Part shown: positions 1 to 47,863 of the stretch, one piece after another | Position numbering within the stretch: the stretch's first letter is position 1 | How the letters are laid out: each line of letters starts with the position of its first letter | NCBI RefSeq assembly: GCF_025118155.1 | Contig: NW_026251389.1 | Span: forward strand, 1,116,001 to 1,180,000 | Direction: 5' to 3' | DNA length: 64,000 nucleotides | Source: Cokeromyces recurvatus | Taxonomy: Eukaryota > Mucoromycota > Mucoromycetes > Mucorales > Mucoraceae | Notes under the pieces: model-generated | The model's database searches: none | What the model saw: the letters and a program-made list of their open reading frames with translations, nothing else | Told to the model about the DNA's origin: nothing | Program-made: the position numbers and the translations under genes

Positions 1-3000
1 TTATAACATGGACGATTAATTGTACTCCTTAAAAATTAATTATAGATGTATGGTGCGCTTGGTGAGGATGGTAACACAGAGCTTATGAAGCGTCCAACAC
101 CTAATACTGATGCAAATGAAACATACACTAAAGATACCCCTATAAAAAAGTACGAAGGTAATGATGTCGTGGAGCTTACAAAAGCATTACTTTCTATTGG
201 AGATTTGAAAAATGCACAGTTGATGCTCTCTGAATATGATAAGCTCATTGATTTATTTCCTGAACTTGCGCATGATATCTACCGTCTTTGTAAGGCTGTC
301 CTTGAACCTGCTTATACTATTTTTGTACCTCCTAAAACTCAAGCACTTTATACCCATCTTCACGAATGTGCTGAAGCCTCAAAGATTAAATCTGCCTTTT
401 CTACACAAGACGACCCAAATCCTACTGTACCTGATCATATCGAATTTAAGTCTGTTCTTGTTACTGATGCGCTTTTACACAATACTCGTGACTTAATCAA
501 GAAAGAGCGATATGTATTTTTCTATAAAGAGTGGGAAGATAATTTACAGCCATGTTTAACAGTAGAATGTTTAACTACTCATTTCTTGCCTTTAATGCGT
601 CTTGCTGGTCATCGTACATACTTGGTTACAGACCTTATACATAAGCTTATTTTAATTATTGGTGGGATTATTGAGCGTGGCTCAGAAATTCCTGATAGTC
701 GCGTTCACTGTAATAATATGCTTCGTGAAATTCTTTTACCTGCTATCTCCTTTAGTCACGGAAACCCTGGTACAATGGCCAGCGTCTGGGAAGTATTGTG
801 CCATTTCTCTTTTCAAGAAAGGTATGCACTATATGGTGAATGGTTTACTGATTTCTACAAAAAAACTATTGAAACAAAATTATTAAAAGCCCGTACTGAA
901 CGTGCCATAAAAGGCGTAATGCGCCGTATTTCCAAGAATGATGTACGTCGTTGTAGTCGCGATTTGGGTAAATTAGCCCATTCTAATCCTACATTAGTGT
1001 TTAATATTATGTTGGATCAGTTACAGCAGTTTGATAATATGGCACCAATGTTAGCTGATGCCTGTCGTTATCTGGGTGATTTTTCATATGATGTTCTTGG
1101 ATATGTACTTACTGATAAATGGACGGGCTCACAAGGTCCTGGTCGAATCCCTAAAACTAAAGAAAAAGAAGACGGTATGCCCGCTACTTGGTTACGTGCT
1201 CTTTCTGTCTTTGCTGGTATGCTTTTTAAGAAACAAGATATTGAAGCAACTCCTTTATTACGCTATATAGCGCGTCGTTTACGTTATGATAACGCAGTAT
1301 CAGATCTTATTATTCTTAATGAATTTATTACAAAGATGGGAGGTATTGAAATCTTGGCTAGTGCTTGTACTGAAGATCAAATAACTGCAGCTAGCTGCTC
1401 TGAATTCCTCAAAACTGAAGCCTTCTTACCTATTTCTATGGATAATCGTCGTGCATCACGTCGTGTATTAAACCGGCTTAAAGACTCTCTTCGTCGAAAT
1501 AATATTGGCTTTGAAATTCTTGTTCTGCTCTACAGACTTGAAGAAGTTTACGAAATTGAACAAGATATTCAGCCTAGTACTCGATGCTCAAAAATTGATC
1601 GTGTAAGACAGACTCAGTTACAGTATTTTGAATTATTAATGTCTTTATTTGAAGGCGAAGAATTTGCATCGTTTATGCCTGATGTTGATATACTAGTTAG
1701 AGATTATGCTCTCCCTCTTGAAGTTGCATTAAACTTCAATCGTCCTAAGACGCAATTTATAATTCAAAAGAATTTGGAAACTCCTGTTGTTAAAGATGAA
1801 ATATGGCCTCCTTTCAAACCCTTGAATGATGTTATACCTTCTTTATTACCAAGTCCTCCTTTGTCTACATATTTTTCATCTGAGTTCTATACTATCTTCT
1901 GGCAGCTTAGCTTATATGATATATACTGTCCTGAAAGCCATTATGAAGCAGCCATTAAGCGTCATACTGAGATGGTTCGCCAGTGTCAAGATACTCGTAG
2001 TTCCTTTTATCAAAGTAACCGTCCTTCGGTAGTCAGCAAAGCAGAACGTCAAGCTCAAGCTAGTTTGGAAGTGCTTCGTGAGGACTTACCTCGTCATAAA
2101 GCTCATGTTGCAAAAGTTATTTCTGTTTTGAACGAAGCTAAGTCACGCTGGTTTCCTGCCACTAAACAACGGGATGCTCAAACTGCAAGTATTATGGACT
2201 ATTGCATTTTACATAGAAGTAGACAATCTGAAATTGATGCTGCTTTCTGCTTTGAGTTCAGTATGCTAATGCATCGTCTAAATGTACCAAACTTCTCAAG
2301 TTTAACTTTATTTGATAGAATACTATCAGAGTACCTATCACCTTGCTTTATAGCCCTCTCTGAATATGAAGCCACAAACTACTCACGATTCTTTTATAAG
2401 TCACTAATGAAGATGAAAGGATGGTGCGATGATGAAAAACTTTATAATAAAGAAGCTATTGGAGATAATCTTGTTGGTTTTCAGAAAAATTGGAATGATG
2501 ATTCTTCAGTTCCTATCAAAAAAGAAGATCTCTTGGCTTTTAGTGAATTCCAGCGTTTCCTACACAAATGGCATTTTAAGACTACAGTTGTGATCGAACA
2601 TGCACTTAAATCTGATGATGCATATGTAATTAAAAATTCTTTCTTGGTACTTCGCCAATTTATACCTTGCTTCCCTCTTGTTCAAGAGCATGGTAATATA
2701 CTTGTAAAAGTAGTCAAGAGGCTTGCTGAAGAAGAAAAGCGTGGTAATATTAAAGTGCTTGCAAGAAGTTACCTTGGCCTCATCACAAAATATAAATCTA
2801 AATGGATTCCAAAACAAACATTCCTTGGTATCAAAAATGACCCTGCTCCTGTAGATATAAAAATTGCACTTACTAGCAGCAGCAGTAGTAGTAGTAATAA
2901 TAATCATAGTAGCGAGTCTAATAGTAGTAGTAAAGACGATACCGGGAAAAAGCGTGCTGATGAGTCATCTGCTAAGCACACTTCATCAAGAAGTAGTAGC

Positions 3001-3597
3001 TCACAAAATCAAGTACAGAGCGCCACTAGTTCTTCATCCTCAACACAAAAGAGACAACGTGAGGACTCATCTAGGAGTGAAAGCTCTCGTCCTGACAAAT
3101 CAGCACGTGTTGATGAAAGCAGCCGTCATCACCACCGAACCACACCATCATCAACTAGACGAAGTTCTCCTAGGGAAACAAAAGCTGATCCTCCTCGCTC
3201 TTCTCGTGATTCTGGTCGTGATACTACTCGAGAAAATGGTCGTGAAACTGTACGTGAGTCTGGTCGTGAAACTGTACGCGAGTCTGGTCGTGAAGGCGGC
3301 CGTGATTCTGCTCGCGATTCTGCTCGCGAAAGTGGACGGGAAAGTGGGCGTGAGACACGTAATGCACCTTCCTCCCCTCGACGTAGTGGCCCCTCTCCTA
3401 CTACTGCTAATGTATCTCGTTCATCTGATTCTAGAGGAGCCAAAAGAGAAGCTGAAGATAGAGGACGTCATGATCGTCCTGAGAAAAGAAGAGATGTTCG
3501 GGATGATAGATCAAGAGGAGAGCGCCGTCCTGATGAGAGGAGAAGGGAAGAGCGTCGAGTTGATGATAGAAGACACGATAGAAGACGACGACGTTAA
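1..3597 (+). CDS. THO2: THO complex subunit 2, 5'-truncated by the window
   Basis: Subunit of the nuclear THO/TREX complex, which couples transcription to mRNP packaging and export. The window opens in an intron that ends with an AG at 45; the visible exon (46-3597) runs in one frame for 1183 residues. The body is a long helical THO2/THOC2-like domain. The last about 240 residues are low-complexity Ser-rich, then Arg/Glu/Asp-rich, with a repeated GRE-type segment around 3205-3360, ending in an RRRR tail. Basic, disordered C-termini are typical of the family and are thought to bind nucleic acid. The true start lies upstream of the window. CWC22 follows on the same strand 0.8 kb downstream. Confident of family; the exact 5' exon border is inferred. 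Confidence 0.88.
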
Positions 3598-37384: not shown

Positions 37385-37917
37385 ATATATTACGAAGGGA
37401 GTATATCTATTATGGACAACATTATATAATAAGGAGGAAAAAAAAAAAGTAGAAATAAAAAGAGTGAGGAGATAAACTGACTGTGTGTAATTTATTATTA
37501 GGAGCTTATTATATACAATAATAATAAACCCGATATTAAAACCGTTCATATTTTATACACAAAGTTTTTATTTGGGGGAGGGGAAAGAGAGAGAGAGAGG
37601 CAGAGAGAGAAGCAGAGAGAGAGAGGCGGAGAAAGAGGCAGAGAGAATGAAACATACACACACACACACATAAAAAGGAGAAGAACAGTAAAGCGATTTT
37701 TTTTTTCTTTTAATTATATAATAAAATTTGAGATTTCAGATAATATTAAAAGAGGAAAAAAAAAATTCCCCTATAATGTCGATCCCACCACATAAATAAC
37801 AAAGTTATGCTCAACTAATAAAATAATATTTTTAGATATAATAATACAACATTCCTTTCCCTTTCCCTTTCCTTTTTTTTTCCTAAATAAACAAAACAAA
37901 ACAAAAACAAAAAGAAT
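37385..37917. repeat. Spacer with GA-rich microsatellite
   Basis: A G/A-rich stretch of imperfect GAGA repeats (about 37573-37650) and a CA repeat precede the kinase promoter, which ends in CTTTCC-rich and ACAAAA-rich sequence. No gene seen. Confidence 0.5.
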
Positions 37918-39140
37918 ATGTTTAATAGTAATAATATATCTATTCAACTTCAAAATTATCATATATCAACAGCTATGGATAAAGTAGCCAGTCATAATGA
38001 AACTATTGCTATTCATCCTTTAGCTATGAATGATAAATCTATCAATAGGGCATCATTATTTTCTTCTACAAATACGATTAAAAAGGAAGAAGAATTAACG
38101 GTATCAGCAAGATCACTTATGCATCATGATTTGAACCCAGAATTTAACAAGAAATATATCCTTGGTCAAGAACTTGGAACAGGAGGATATGGATTTGTTG
38201 TGTCTGCCTATGAACGAGAGACAGGGATTGAACGAGCTGTTAAATTTATTATTCGTCATAAAGTACCTTCAAGTGCTTGGGTGAATGATCCTCAAGAAGA
38301 TGGTTTAGTTCCAATGGAAATTTATTGTCTAAAGCATATTCAACATACAAATATTATTCACTATTTGGATTCTTATAAAGATGACGTCTATTTCTATTTA
38401 GTAATGGAGATACATGGTACACAATGGACAACAAGTACACCCCAATTATTAACACATGATTCACAAACAGATGAAGATGAAGATGAAGATGAGATAGAGA
38501 CACCTACGACCACTCTTCATCGACCTTTTGTACGTCGTACTTCATATGATTTATTTGAATGTATTGAACGTCATAAGAAGTTTAACGAAACACTTGCAAA
38601 ACACATCTTTAAACAAGTTGTAGAATGTGTCGCTTATCTAGACGCTATCGGTATTTGTCATAGAGATATCAAAGATGAAAACATAGTCATTGATAACGAA
38701 TACAAGGTAAAAACCAAAGATGATTAGTTTAGAACAATATGAATTGATTTAATCTTTTTTTCTTGATTTGACAGGTAAAATTAATTGATTTTGGTTCTGC
38801 GGTCATTTTACCTCGCAGTAAGAGATCACAAAATAGAAAAGTATTTACAAAATTCTATGGTACCATCTCTTTTGCTTCACCTGAAATCTTAATGTCTAAA
38901 CCTTATTATGCTGAACCTGCCGAGATTTGGTCCCTTGGTGTCTTATTATTTACATTATTATTTGGTGAGGTTCCCTTTTCAGATTCTAAATCTGCTTGTA
39001 AAGGACGTATTCTATTTCCTGATATTGCTGTTTCTCAAAAAGCAAGACATTTAATAAGTTCTTTATTGATAAAGAATCCAGCTCAACGACCAGATATTCA
39101 TGAAGTATTATCACATCCATGGCTTGTCACTTTAGATTAA
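37918..39140 (+). CDS. Serine/threonine protein kinase, PASK/Pim-like
   Basis: Two exons, 37918-38706 and 38775-39140, join in phase for 384 residues; an inner ATG at 37978 is an alternative start. The kinase domain starts near residue 80. Visible: Gly-rich loop LGTGGYGFVVSA, catalytic Lys in RAVKFI, HRDIKDENIVID with the catalytic Asp, DFGSA, and FASPEIL (usual APE as SPE). A DEDEDEDE acidic insert followed by a basic stretch lies between lobes (about residues 183-205). The RDIKDEN and DFGSA motifs resemble PAS-kinase and Pim kinases, but no PAS domain is seen. It should be active; its substrate is unknown. Confidence 0.85.
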
Positions 39141-42199: not shown

Positions 42200-42572
42200 C
42201 ATGGACATAGACTACGTTATTTACGTTGACTGCTAATTATTGTTATACGACATTAACTTGTTTTCATATATATATATATATATATATCATGCTAAATTAT
42301 ATAAAGTCTGAATCATAAGACGACCTTCATGACAAAGAAGTTACCTTTTGACTTTACTACTTCTACTACTACTACTACTATTCAGCTGAGTCTAAAGTCA
42401 TTTATGCAGCTCCATATAGTTTTTACACTTCAAATTCAGAAAAAAAAAATTAGTTATTGAAGGATTAAACCTTGGGTTCAGACTTCTTACCTATAAAAAT
42501 TTAAATCTCTAAAGGAGAAACCGTGTTTGATATGGCGATATTAAACAAATAATAATAATAATAATAGTATGT
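40368..42572. repeat. Gene-poor AT-rich region with T tracts
   Basis: No coding potential supported in 2.2 kb. It has TTTTA repeats (about 41017-41050), a 43-base T run at 42153-42195, and a (TA)n array at 42268-42287. Short frames are low complexity. Confidence 0.45.
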
Positions 42573-43330
42573 CTAATTCGAACTTTGCTGAAATATAGCA
42601 GAGCGATCATTTCCATAAAGTACAGCTTTTAAAATTTGATACATATTTTTAGAAGCATTCTTGTCACGCTGCCATAACATCCCACAACCTTGGCAAGCAA
42701 GGACACTATGAAGATTGACAATAGCTTCTGTAAAAAAAAAGAAGAAATTTCTTGACATGAGTGGCACAGCTATGTTAACAAATATTTAAGCACAGTTATA
42801 GATAAAAAAATGATTACCGTATAACCTTTGATGTTCGAAATTCATCCACCCATGCAAGTAATAAATCTCCATCCTTTTGCCATTTCTTTAGCTGTCGATA
42901 GAGAATCCTAGTTACACCGGTACGATACGTCTTTATTTTTGATTATTCCTTCCTCAAACATTTCCATTACCAAAAGAGATGAGTGGTAGTTTCCTTTTGT
43001 CATAAGAAAAAGGGGCTCTTTCTTCCAATAATTTTTTTAGCTTTGCTATATAAATAAAATGGCTATTTAATATTATTTCTTTCCAGTGTTCCATCAATAG
43101 TTTGTACCTTGGATTAGATCGCAGGAGGCATTTTCGTATTTCTTCTTTTCGACTTGTTATATTTCCTTCCACCATTCACCAAAATGTTTACCAATTCTTC
43201 TCTCGCCCTTTGGAAGCCTTGATATAAATTAAATCAGCATTTAGCCGTTGAAGATCGGTTAAACTCAAGTATGTCATTAAGGTGTAACAGGATATAAGTA
43301 ACGTATTGAAAATATTTTGAAATCGTAGCT

Positions 43331-43376
<46 letters not shown>

Positions 43377-43663
43377 TGTTGGGGAGAACATCGTTTAGTC
43401 ATTTTTTGGTTCTCTTTCTTCACATGTCTGATAGACCCCTGTGTAGGTATAGCACTTTTTTTTTTGTAGAGCATCTTCTAATTTTGATGCGAGTTCTTCG
43501 CCATCACCGTAAGCGGCAGCAAATACTCTGTCCTCGATTTGGGGTCTATTGCATACAGAGAAGCATCACTTAACTCTTCTTTTGTCATTACATAACCCAA
43601 GAGTGAGAACATCAATATCTTGTTCAGAATAACGGGAATATTTCAGTATCATTCGTCTCGGTA

Positions 43664-43665
<2 letters not shown>
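42573..43665 (-). pseudogene. Decayed Fanzor/TnpB-like RNA-guided nuclease gene
   Basis: Read on the minus strand, pieces in different frames follow the order of Fanzor proteins: RuvC-I-like YAIDPKSR, then FAAAYGDGEE one base out of frame; RYKLLMEHWKEII; APFSYDKRKLPLISFGNGN; GVTRILYRQLKKW; VDEFRTSKV; and, after a probable intron, a zinc ribbon (CHSC and CQGC) with RuvC-III-like WQRDKNASKNM. The catalytic Asp, Glu and Asp are all still readable, but frameshifts (including at a T9 run between CHSC and CQGC), stops and a 40-base T run break the frame. The N-terminus is missing. Thus it is inactive. No guide-RNA end or flank was recognised. Confidence 0.72.
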
Positions 43666-43707
<42 letters not shown>

Positions 43708-45585: not shown

Positions 45586-45732
45586 TTTGCTTTATAACAA
45601 TATAATAGTCGATCTTTTTTTTTTTTTTTCTTTTCCTTTTCCCTTTCCTTTTATCTACTTTAACTAGCTTTAATTTACTTTGTTATTTTACATATAAATC
45701 AGAAAGAGCAAAATAATAATAATAACTGGAAA
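43666..45732. repeat. Gene-free region flanking the pseudogene
   Basis: No gene supported. It has a T run next to the pseudogene (43669-43700), a CT repeat near 43915-43931, TA arrays near 44750-44765 and 44955-44970, and a 45-base T run at 45540-45584 upstream of the JmjC gene. The right 100 bases are the likely JmjC promoter. Confidence 0.45.
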
Positions 45733-47863
45733 ATGCCGAAAATTAACCTGTTTGAAAATGAAAATAATTTAAGCTTCCCTTATGTAGCTACTAAAAGAAT
45801 AAATTATTTGGATTACACAAATGAATCTTTACATAATTTTATAAATCAATATTGTATTGAACAAGGAAAGCCCCTGGTCGTATTTAATATGAATAAATCC
45901 ATTCATTGGAATGACAGTCTTTTTACTTTGGATCAACTCAAAGACTACCGTGGTGACATGGGTAAAAAAATAAAATAAAATAAAAAAATAATCTTATTAC
46001 ATAATATATTTATTTATACACTTAAGGATACAAAAAAAAATTGCTTCCATCTAATATTTACTATTTCTCTTTATTATATAATAATAGAGATTGAACTTAA
46101 AACTACTAGTCCAAAAGATAAAACACTAAAGACCCGTTTAGGTGATTTTATTCAATCCATTCAAGAGACCTATAAATTACCTTCTTGTACTTCTAATAGT
46201 ACCATCATTTATAAATCAGTCCCAAAAGTTTACAGTCAAGCTTATGCTAAAGATGTGATTTGTCCTACTGAGTATCGATCTGCTATAGAACAAATCATAC
46301 CTAGTTATCTTTTACCTCATGGTAGTCATGATCTCTTTTCTTCTTTACCAAGTCGTTTTCAAGCTGAACATATTATGTGTTATCTTGGACAAGATAAGAC
46401 GGGTACTCCTCTTCATCGTGATTTATGTGGTACAATGGGTCATAACTTGATGACCATGGCCTCCTCCTCTCCTGATGGTTACGCTGAGTGGTTCATTATA
46501 GAAAATAAATACCGACATGCTTTAGCTGAAGTTCTGAAACCTACCGTCTTTGAAAATAAGCGCACAGATCGTACTGATCGTATATGTAAGACAAATCCCA
46601 GTAAAAGGAAAAGAAAACGATCTAGAGAACAACCATGTGCTTCTTCTAGTACAAGGAGTTCATTTATGGAAAGTGATCGTGCTTGGCTAACTCATTATCT
46701 TATTAAAAAGGCCCAGGCGGTAGTCGTGAACGTGATTGTCCAGAGGCCCGGCGATCTGGTCATCATTCCTAGTCGTGCTTATCATCAAGTAAGGAATGCG
46801 GGGGTCTCGGTCAAGATCGCATGGAATCGAATCACTCCTCAGACTTTAACTTATGCCTTTGAGGATCAATTACCGTTGTATAGAATCATTAACCGTCCCG
46901 AGGTCTATAAATGCAAAGCAATCGTGGCCATTACGTTAAAGAAATGGAACAAGCAACTTGAAAAGTTCATAAAGCATCAGTCCTCTCTCTTTCAGCATAG
47001 TTCATTGATCGAGATCAAACTGTTACTCCACTTACTCTTACATCACCTAATTGAGCCTGAACTCCTCTATCCTGCTGCTACTACTGCTACTACTGCTGCT
47101 ACTGCTGCTACTGCTGCTATTACTGCTTCTGCTGCTGATCTCCCTACTGACCCACCAGAGGATACATTGACGATCGTATGTGATTTTTGTCATGGTGATA
47201 TCTTTCATCGTTATTATCATTGCGAAAGATGTGACGATCATTATGATTTATGTATGGATTGTTATGCCCTTGGTCGTGCTTGTGAACATGTAAATGACAT
47301 GAGAATGAGACAAAGTGCGGATGATATGTATCAATATGTCAAACTCTATCAAGATTTAGTGAAAAATGTAAATACTTTACATCCCGAAACTATCAAAGTT
47401 GGACTAGAAGATGACATACTATCAAAGTAGTGTATTTTATAATGTGATGTTCAAAAGTACTCATACTAATCTATCTATTATAAGATCATCAGATACAGCT
47501 AATAATTTAGCTACGACATGTAGACGTCTAGAGTTACATAGGAGAGATGCTGGTACTCGATATAATTATTTAAAGTGCAGTCATTGTAACAAGTCTGTTC
47601 ATATCTCTACCTTGGGTCAACAAGGTATTAGTCTCTCTTCTATCTTTAGACGTGGTCCCTGTCGTTCATTTAATAATAGTCATTCATCAATGAAAAATGT
47701 ATTTGTATGTAATACATGTACAAATCGATGTCATGAATGTTGGCCATTAGAGAAAAAACTAGGCTCCCTTGAAGACTTTGATTTAGTTTATTATCATCAT
47801 CCTGCACATGATTCTCGTAATCGAGGAGGTTTCATTGATTACACGATTGAAAGGGTAAGCACC

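What the first reader, a model, noticed from the sequence alone, without database searches (positions are those of the whole stretch)
42573..43665. A decayed Fanzor (eukaryotic TnpB-like) gene with its catalytic residues still readable
Minus-strand fragments in several frames keep the order RuvC-I (AIDPKSR), DEFRTSK, Cys pairs CHSC and CQGC, and WQRDKNASKNM. Fanzors are RNA-guided DNA nucleases of eukaryotes. The break points (a T9 slip, a 40-base T run, stops) show how such genes die in this genome and suggest live copies elsewhere.
Basis: partly seen in the sequence, partly recalled or inferred. Interest (0 to 1): 0.75.

Follow-up and report, generated by a model that had tools for sequence, protein, structure and literature searches.

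The report
Dead fungal Fanzor with guide-RNA relic
This stretch of a mould's genome holds the broken remains of a transposon gene for an RNA-guided DNA-cutting enzyme (Fanzor) together with a readable trace of what is probably its guide RNA, and the same genome holds many younger copies, some with an unbroken catalytic half.

Summary
Confirmed. Window 43549-42585 (-) aligns, frameshift-tolerantly, to the RuvC-zinc-ribbon half of Fanzor1 (score 454; 100 shuffles at most 51; 112 other window pieces at most 86). Catalytic Asp, Glu, Arg-Asp and four Cys are readable in order. It is dead: several small length changes, one stop, no recognisable N-terminal half. Two corrections: the gap between DEFRTSK and CHSC is an intron, and long T runs are common in the whole window.
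The host is Cokeromyces recurvatus (Mucorales). Its genome has 118 PF07282 matches, 60 over the cut-off, and young Fanzor families; five of 56 other loci show no small frameshift or stop over the catalytic half.
It belongs to a structured element beside about 30 Fanzor copies whose two hairpins covary: a good omegaRNA-scaffold candidate, without RNA data. It lies 80-227 nt inside the transposon end in 13 copies measured, unlike published Fanzor1 scaffolds, so how the guide is attached is open.
Verdict: new member of a known kind.

The parts
42585..43549 (-). decayed Fanzor1 gene, RuvC and zinc-ribbon half only; several small length changes and one stop codon
   Evidence: frameshift-tolerant alignment, score 454, controls at most 86
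43544..43546 (-). codon of the RuvC-I catalytic Asp (IDP)
   Evidence: Asp conserved in the column
42841..42843 (-). codon of the catalytic Glu in DEFRTS, before the zinc ribbon
   Evidence: invariant in A2 and A3; place as described in PMC11423790 (passage)
42770..42825 (-). intron of 56 nt between DEFRTSK and CHSC, not a lesion
   Evidence: GT..AG; insert at this place printed for 11 of 12 loci looked at, window included
42663..42766 (-). zinc-ribbon cysteines (CHSC, CQGC) and RuvC-III Arg-Asp (WQRD)
42486..42543 (-). omegaRNA-scaffold candidate: hairpins SL1 and SL2 and 3' motif (here TTTTTATAGGTAAG)
   Evidence: covariance model R1, 65.2 bits, E 9.1e-11; next match in the window 14.1 bits. 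The window sequence is one of the 23 in the model.
42417..42436 (-). relic of the transposon right terminal repeat, followed by TA (42416-42415)
   Evidence: match to right ends of other copies; no + strand match to its 22-mer within 6 substitutions in the 64 kb, so no left end found
43332..43371 (+). T run inside the relic
43667..43700 (+). T run at the 5' break of the relic; upstream of it no Fanzor N-terminal sequence is recognisable

Best explanation
It is the dead, 5'-truncated remnant of a Fanzor1-carrying DNA transposon in Cokeromyces recurvatus. Shown: the coding remnant, its order of motifs and its lesions; younger copies of the same kind in the genome, some without small frameshifts or stops over the catalytic half; in families A and E, terminal inverted repeats and TA at the ends; a covarying structured non-coding element just after (sometimes overlapping) the stop codon in about 30 copies, of which the window keeps a recognisable one. 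Inferred: when alive the protein bound that RNA, used a guide to find DNA next to a short motif and cut it with its RuvC site, which helped the transposon persist; movement itself needed a Tc1/mariner-like transposase from elsewhere, since in the (capped) list of places with the family A repeat no pair with a transposase was seen. The window copy lost its front half and its reading frame. I do not claim that its RNA is still in use.
For: Alignment score against controls. PF07282 at E <= 1 in 118 places of the genome, 60 over the cut-off on their own. Profile of three copies: best PDB match SpuFz1, E 6.7e-10; Foldseek of a relative's model: 7 of 7 matches at E <= 0.001 are Fanzors. Relatives in Mucor, Parasitella, Rhizopus, Gilbertella, Mycotypha and Benjaminiella. 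Copies in families, many pairs 91-98% identical. RNA element: 93.2% of cells paired (shuffles 84.8), 31 cells changed on both sides (8.7), covariation score 0.323 (0.168), 0 of 500 shuffles as high for these three; slid registers 33-45% paired. Element ends: inverted repeats in extended L023, L019, L041 and L043; the right flank starts with TA in 38 of 46 rows, three of those rows being poorly placed. Truncation: the window's N-terminal score, 108, is below all 12 controls (112-143), while its nearest relatives L007 and L008 score 326 and 388 and L053 895.
Against: No RNA or protein data. The window fragments by themselves pass no curated family cut-off. Left end and N-terminal half are missing, so the element cannot be delimited on that side; the N-terminal test is weak for distant copies (A and E copies score only 152-173). 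The closest copies share only 68-76% of DNA with the window. In the pair count two measures are weak: pairs with a double change 7 against 3.9 (8 of 500 shuffles as high), further pair types 16 against 16.4 (388 of 500). The transposase is not identified.
Confidence: 0.93

Rival explanations
1. The conserved non-coding element is not a guide-RNA scaffold but another structured 3' element, for example a 3'-UTR or RNA-processing signal of the Fanzor mRNA.
For: It ends in a nearly invariant CAGGTA that also looks like a 5' splice site, and it lies 80-227 nt before the transposon end in the 13 copies measured, whereas published Fanzor1 scaffolds run through the terminal repeat to the guide.
Against: Place (over or just after the stop), size (about 58 nt to the end of the motif) and two-hairpin build agree with SpuFz1 (75-nt scaffold) and PpFz1 (75 nt, SL1 and SL2). 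Of 36 exact genome hits to its 3' part, 28 follow a Fanzor match on the same strand by position, 30 after reading the loci.
Confidence: 0.2
2. The window copy is a ghost locus: its RNA is kept by selection and guides intact Fanzors in trans, as proposed for SpuFz ghosts.
For: RNA element recognisable at 65 bits although the gene is dead; ghosts whose RNA scaffolds work are published for S. punctatus (passages).
Against: Of the conserved RNA columns the window keeps 24 of 27 (14 other copies keep 25-27 of 27-29); of the conserved protein columns 33 of 48, or 33 of the 41 that align (14 other copies 39-47 of 47-53) (no formal test made). One outer pair, one SL1 pair, the two innermost SL2 pairs and the 3' motif are altered in the window.
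Confidence: 0.06
3. The fragments are a decayed bacterial-type TnpB or Fanzor2, not Fanzor1.
For: NCBIfam's weak hits are TnpB models; LaTranC is the second PDB match.
Against: The full-length relatives are 690-793-aa Mucorales proteins, Fanzor1 structures head the structure search, and the gene has introns. No tree was built.
Confidence: 0.02

Closest known systems
Fanzor1 of Mucorales (PpFz1 of Parasitella parasitica; MCi and ROr elements of Mucor and Rhizopus)
   Same: Order of catalytic motifs and zinc ribbon; host group; several families in transposons; a two-hairpin RNA of similar length
   Different: The window copy is dead and truncated; in this genome the RNA element lies 80-227 nt inside the right end (13 copies); the roughly 100-aa FRI domain of PpFz1 was not tested for
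SpuFz1 / Spu-1 of Spizellomyces punctatus
   Same: Transposon with terminal inverted repeats and TA target, carrying Fanzor and no transposase; RNA between stop codon and right end; related protein (E 6.7e-10)
   Different: Spu-1 is about 2.1 kb with 30-33-bp repeats and its scaffold includes the repeat; here about 2.4-2.9 kb with repeats of 55-111 bp, introns, and the structured part set back from the end
TnpB of IS605/IS607
   Same: RuvC and zinc-ribbon nuclease; RNA at the 3' end of the gene
   Different: Bacterial, shorter, without introns (recalled)

Membership tests
Fanzor1 | RuvC-I Asp, then [TS][TS] with C4 zinc finger, then Arg-Asp, in this order | tested here: met
   motif as given in PMC3627910 (passages)
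Fanzor1 | sequence or fold similarity to solved Fanzor1 proteins | tested here: met
   tested on other copies and Mucorales relatives, not on the window fragments: SpuFz1 E 6.7e-10, 1.1e-11; Foldseek matches at E <= 0.001 are Fanzors only, from a low-confidence model. phmmer of the Parasitella relative P0011 alone found nothing at 0.01.
Fanzor1 | REC and WED domains before RuvC (600-700 aa protein) | tested here: not met
   not recognisable in the window copy, present in L053, L008 and L007; read as loss by truncation
Fanzor1 | lies within a transposon with defined ends | tested here: inconclusive
   right-end relic and TA present, left end not found; families A and E have both ends
Fanzor1 | place in a tree with Fanzor1 rather than Fanzor2 or TnpB | not tested
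   no tree was built
Fanzor omegaRNA | structured RNA at the 3' end of the gene | tested here: met
   structure predicted, no RNA data
Fanzor omegaRNA | scaffold reaches the transposon end, so that the guide is flanking DNA | tested here: not met
   the 3' motif lies 80-227 nt before the end in the 13 copies measured, window 80 (the script failed on a fourteenth)
Fanzor omegaRNA | expression and binding to the protein | not testable with these tools
   needs small-RNA sequencing

The most novel reading that the evidence does not exclude
In these mould Fanzors the guide-RNA scaffold is separated from the transposon end, and the missing link is made at the RNA level: the scaffold ends in a nearly invariant UUACAG followed by GUA, a usable 5' splice site, so that splicing joins the scaffold to sequence transcribed from the flank and so makes the guide. 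(The alternatives gained no support: for a guide fixed inside family E, the 16-mer after the motif has 4 near matches and no exact one outside the family, against 4 for the reversed control; pairing of UACAG with the end CUG|UA is favoured in folding only in family B, P 0.56, of 13 copies.)
Probability: 0.1. Interest if true: 0.88.

Novelty: new member of a known kind. Interest (0 to 1): 0.5.

Why it matters
Fanzors are being developed as compact RNA-guided nucleases, and what they do for their transposons in eukaryotes is an open question. This relic leads to a fungal genome with dozens of Fanzor copies in several young families, and to a covarying guide-RNA candidate that can be aligned across them. 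Because the RNA candidate sits well inside the transposon end, the genome puts a sharp, cheap question to experiment: where does the guide of these RNAs start?

Tried and rejected
Selection on the window's RNA after the gene died: tested by retention of conserved columns, no clear difference. Guide fixed inside the element: no extra exact genomic target for family E; other families were not searched. Bridging of the scaffold motif to the transposon end by base pairing: not supported by partition-function folding in 12 of 13 copies. A third hairpin around the motif: p < 0.05 for A (L041), B, C, L007, L035 and the window, combined p 1e-6 over 19 representatives, but not found in D (L061, L068, L054), E, F, G, L016, L021 or L059. 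A transposase partner with the family A repeat: 42 repeat matches in a list that is a lower bound; by eye, nine inverted pairs 1.8-3.6 kb apart flank Fanzor and two are short; none was seen with a transposase, but no locus without Fanzor was fetched to look. DDE_3 transposase pieces near the C2 copy lie outside that element. A retrotransposon that targets the guide-RNA gene specifically: 40 of 48 places with its 3' end were fetched, 36 have a readable end; one lies in the motif by pattern (L095) and one by eye (L125); two further loose pattern tags (L124, L127) look like chance; so the LINE is not specific to it. AlphaFold model of P0001: mean pLDDT 57, RuvC part mostly under 50, used only for the Foldseek ranking. 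Rfam: no match.

Full report
What is there. The fragments alone are weak: the last one matches PF07282 at E 0.0033, below the curated cut-off; the others match nothing convincing. I therefore wrote a frameshift-tolerant DNA-to-profile alignment and used a profile of seven other copies from the same genome. The window scores 454 over 43549-42585; the antisense strand 24, the reversed sequence 76, 100 shuffles that roughly keep dinucleotides at most 51, and 112 other 1.1-kb pieces of the window at most 86. The RuvC-I Asp codon is at 43546, the Glu of DEFRTS at 42843, three of the four cysteines at 42757, 42695 and 42686, the first one three codons before these, and the Arg-Asp at 42668-42663. 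The place of the Glu, between the last strand and the zinc ribbon, is that described for Fanzor (passages of PMC11423790).

How it is broken. The alignment needs several short length changes and passes one stop. In the census of 57 sequences the window has 7 frameshift-type events and 1 stop, more than any of the 38 loci that score above it; of the 18 that score below it, most belong to families the profile fits badly. The 56-nt gap between DEFRTSK and CHSC is a GT..AG intron: 11 of the 12 loci examined, window included, show an insert of 52-68 nt at this place, while copies L029, L012 and L033 have none there. The N-terminal half is not recognisable: aligning 46500-43600 to the N-terminal 413 aa of a Mucor relative scores 108, below all 12 codon-shuffled controls (112-143). 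Its nearest relatives L007 and L008 score 326 and 388 and L053 895; family A and E copies score only 152-173, so the test is weak for distant copies. A T run (43667-43700) sits at this break. T runs are not special to the gene: the 64 kb hold 24 A/T runs of 20 or more.

Host and relatives. The genome has 28.05 Mb in 64 contigs. A protein search with a spliced copy finds Cokeromyces recurvatus proteins on contigs of exactly the lengths of C1, C12 and C28, one at 100% identity over 29% of the query (contig lengths), so the genome is that of this Mucorales fungus. Other relatives are in Mucor flavus (49% over the whole query), Parasitella parasitica (40% over 99%), Rhizopus, Gilbertella, Mycotypha and Benjaminiella. 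In the PDB, profiles of three copies and of 12 Mucorales relatives have SpuFz1 first and the TnpB-like LaTranC next; single-sequence phmmer gives SpuFz1 at 9.4e-5 for L029, 1.1e-6 for P0001 and nothing at 0.01 for P0011. Foldseek with a low-confidence model of P0001 has only Fanzors at E <= 0.001, with TM-scores near 0.3.

Copies in the genome. PF07282 has 118 matches at E <= 1, 60 over its cut-off on their own. Many copies fall into families with pairs 91-98% identical over 1 to 3.5 kb; family F is looser, 85-91%; L055/L056 share their flank and may be a duplication. Over the RuvC to zinc-ribbon half, L029, L058, L064, L057 and L043 show no small frameshift and no stop, inserts of 40 nt or more being taken as introns; families E and F align too poorly to be judged. 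Extended family E and A elements have inverted repeats (about 2.4 and 2.9 kb between outer ends, repeats of 55-111 bp) beginning TA|CAGT and ending ACTG. Right flanks begin with TA in 38 of 46 rows, three rows being poorly placed; apart from L055/L056 no two flanks are alike. Bao and Jurka 2013 report ten Fanzor1 families in Mucor circinelloides and about 150 copies of one element in a red alga (passages), and Saito et al. 42 Fanzor loci and 134 ghosts in S. punctatus (section), so the number here is high but not unheard of.

The guide-RNA candidate. Comparing the window with other copies showed a block after the stop codon, 42552-42477, that is more alike (77-82% in seven family A copies) than the coding part (65-76%). 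Iterated profile searches started from the window found it in 32 of 57 sequences, window included. An alignment of 23 distinct sequences gives, by RNAalifold, two hairpins with 6 of 9 pairs supported by double changes. With the outer AUC/GAU helix and longer stems added by me after looking, 93.2% of cells pair (shuffles 84.8), 31 cells have changes on both sides (8.7) and sliding the partner drops pairing to 33-45%; but pairs with a double change are 7 against 3.9 (8 of 500 shuffles as high) and further pair types 16 against 16.4 (388 of 500), and related sequences can exceed such shuffles without structure. The covariance model finds the window element at 65.2 bits, next best 14.1, and 30 strong matches in 57 loci, which are 28 distinct places, 23 of them the model's own sequences. 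An 18-letter pattern of its 3' part has 36 exact hits in the genome against 1 for the reversed pattern; compared by eye follow a Fanzor match on the same strand within about 1 kb, 30 after reading the loci. Families D, E and F have other hairpins, judged by eye, but the same 3' motif TTACAGGTA, CTACAGGTA or TAACAGGTA. The motif is nearly but not fully invariant (for example TATAGGTA in the window, TACTGGTA in L008, TACATGTA in L038).

How it likely works. By analogy with SpuFz1 and PpFz1 the RNA is the omegaRNA scaffold, and the protein cuts DNA matching a guide of about 15 nt at its 3' end. In published Fanzor1 loci the scaffold reaches the end of the transposon and takes in the terminal repeat and target duplication. 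Here the motif lies 80-227 nt before the end in the 13 copies measured. Three ways to attach a guide were considered. An internal fixed guide: for family E there is no exact match outside the family, and 4 near matches against 4 in the control. Pairing of UACAG with CUG|UA: folding gives it weight only in family B. Splicing at CAG|GTA: compatible with the sequence, untested. The window shows TATAG together with a CTA|TA end, a paired double change, but ends with an A there are not rare among the copies, so I give it no weight.

Is the window's RNA alive? Conserved RNA columns kept: 24 of 27 (other copies 25-27 of 27-29); conserved protein columns kept: 33 of 48, or 33 of the 41 aligned (other copies 39-47 of 47-53). 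Both have decayed; this is no evidence for selection on the RNA alone.

Comparison with print. Listings read: Fanzor, 40 of 82 papers; Fanzor with Mucor, 2 of 2; Fanzor with splicing, 20 of 33; two of Fanzor, spliceosome and intron, 10 of 11,085; TnpB with guide RNA, splicing or right end, 12 of 43; two of Cokeromyces, Fanzor and TnpB, 10 of 54, none of the ten naming Cokeromyces. No listed title or abstract deals with Fanzor in Cokeromyces or with spliced Fanzor guides; most entries were not opened, and subscription papers are not held. Read in part: PMC10432273 (sections 5, 6, 7 and passages), PMC11423790 (sections 5, 6 and passages), PMC10711439 and PMC3627910 (passages).

Noticed in passing
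L076, L077, L079, L080, L082, L083, L089: Solo 3' modules: sequence homologous to Fanzor elements starts right after hairpin SL2 (at TTNAGATNNTTACAG) and runs on towards the right end. Upstream is an antisense LINE (L077, L082, L083, L089) or DNA without clear match in the held loci (L076, L080; L079 in part). L082 and L083 share flanks. At least five junctions within about 3 bases; unexplained.
   Followed up: partly
L046 (oriented copy 2518-3200), L009: A non-LTR retrotransposon (LINE) is inserted in the guide-RNA motif; in L046 it is flanked by a repeat of about 13 nt, TTTAGATATTTAC. Of 36 readable LINE 3' ends one lies in this motif by pattern and one by eye.
   Followed up: partly
window, all 64 kb: 24 A or T runs of 20 or more bases; 15 of 30 or more, of which 13 are T on the + strand.
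   Followed up: no
L084-L087 (for example L084 449-505): The 3' region of this LINE carries a stretch like the second hairpin and 3' motif of the family B guide-RNA candidate (R1 22.8 bits in L084, weaker in the others).
   Followed up: partly
P0001, P0011 and L053, N-terminus: CCHC-like zinc knuckles (such as CSKCKQRGHKSARSPLC in P0001) before the REC part, seen by eye; Pfam zf-CCHC only at E 0.47 in P0011.
   Followed up: partly
L091 (C15:163200-164100): By eye, a Fanzor of another type with a different zinc ribbon, followed by a region with TTGATACAGGTGAG.
   Followed up: no
L007 352-1562 (-): IS630/Tc1-like DDE_3 transposase gene pieces next to, but outside, the C2 Fanzor element.
   Followed up: no
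window 37891-39140 (+) and 45664-47430 (+): The relic lies between a protein-kinase-like gene and long open frames; neighbours judged by eye only.
   Followed up: no
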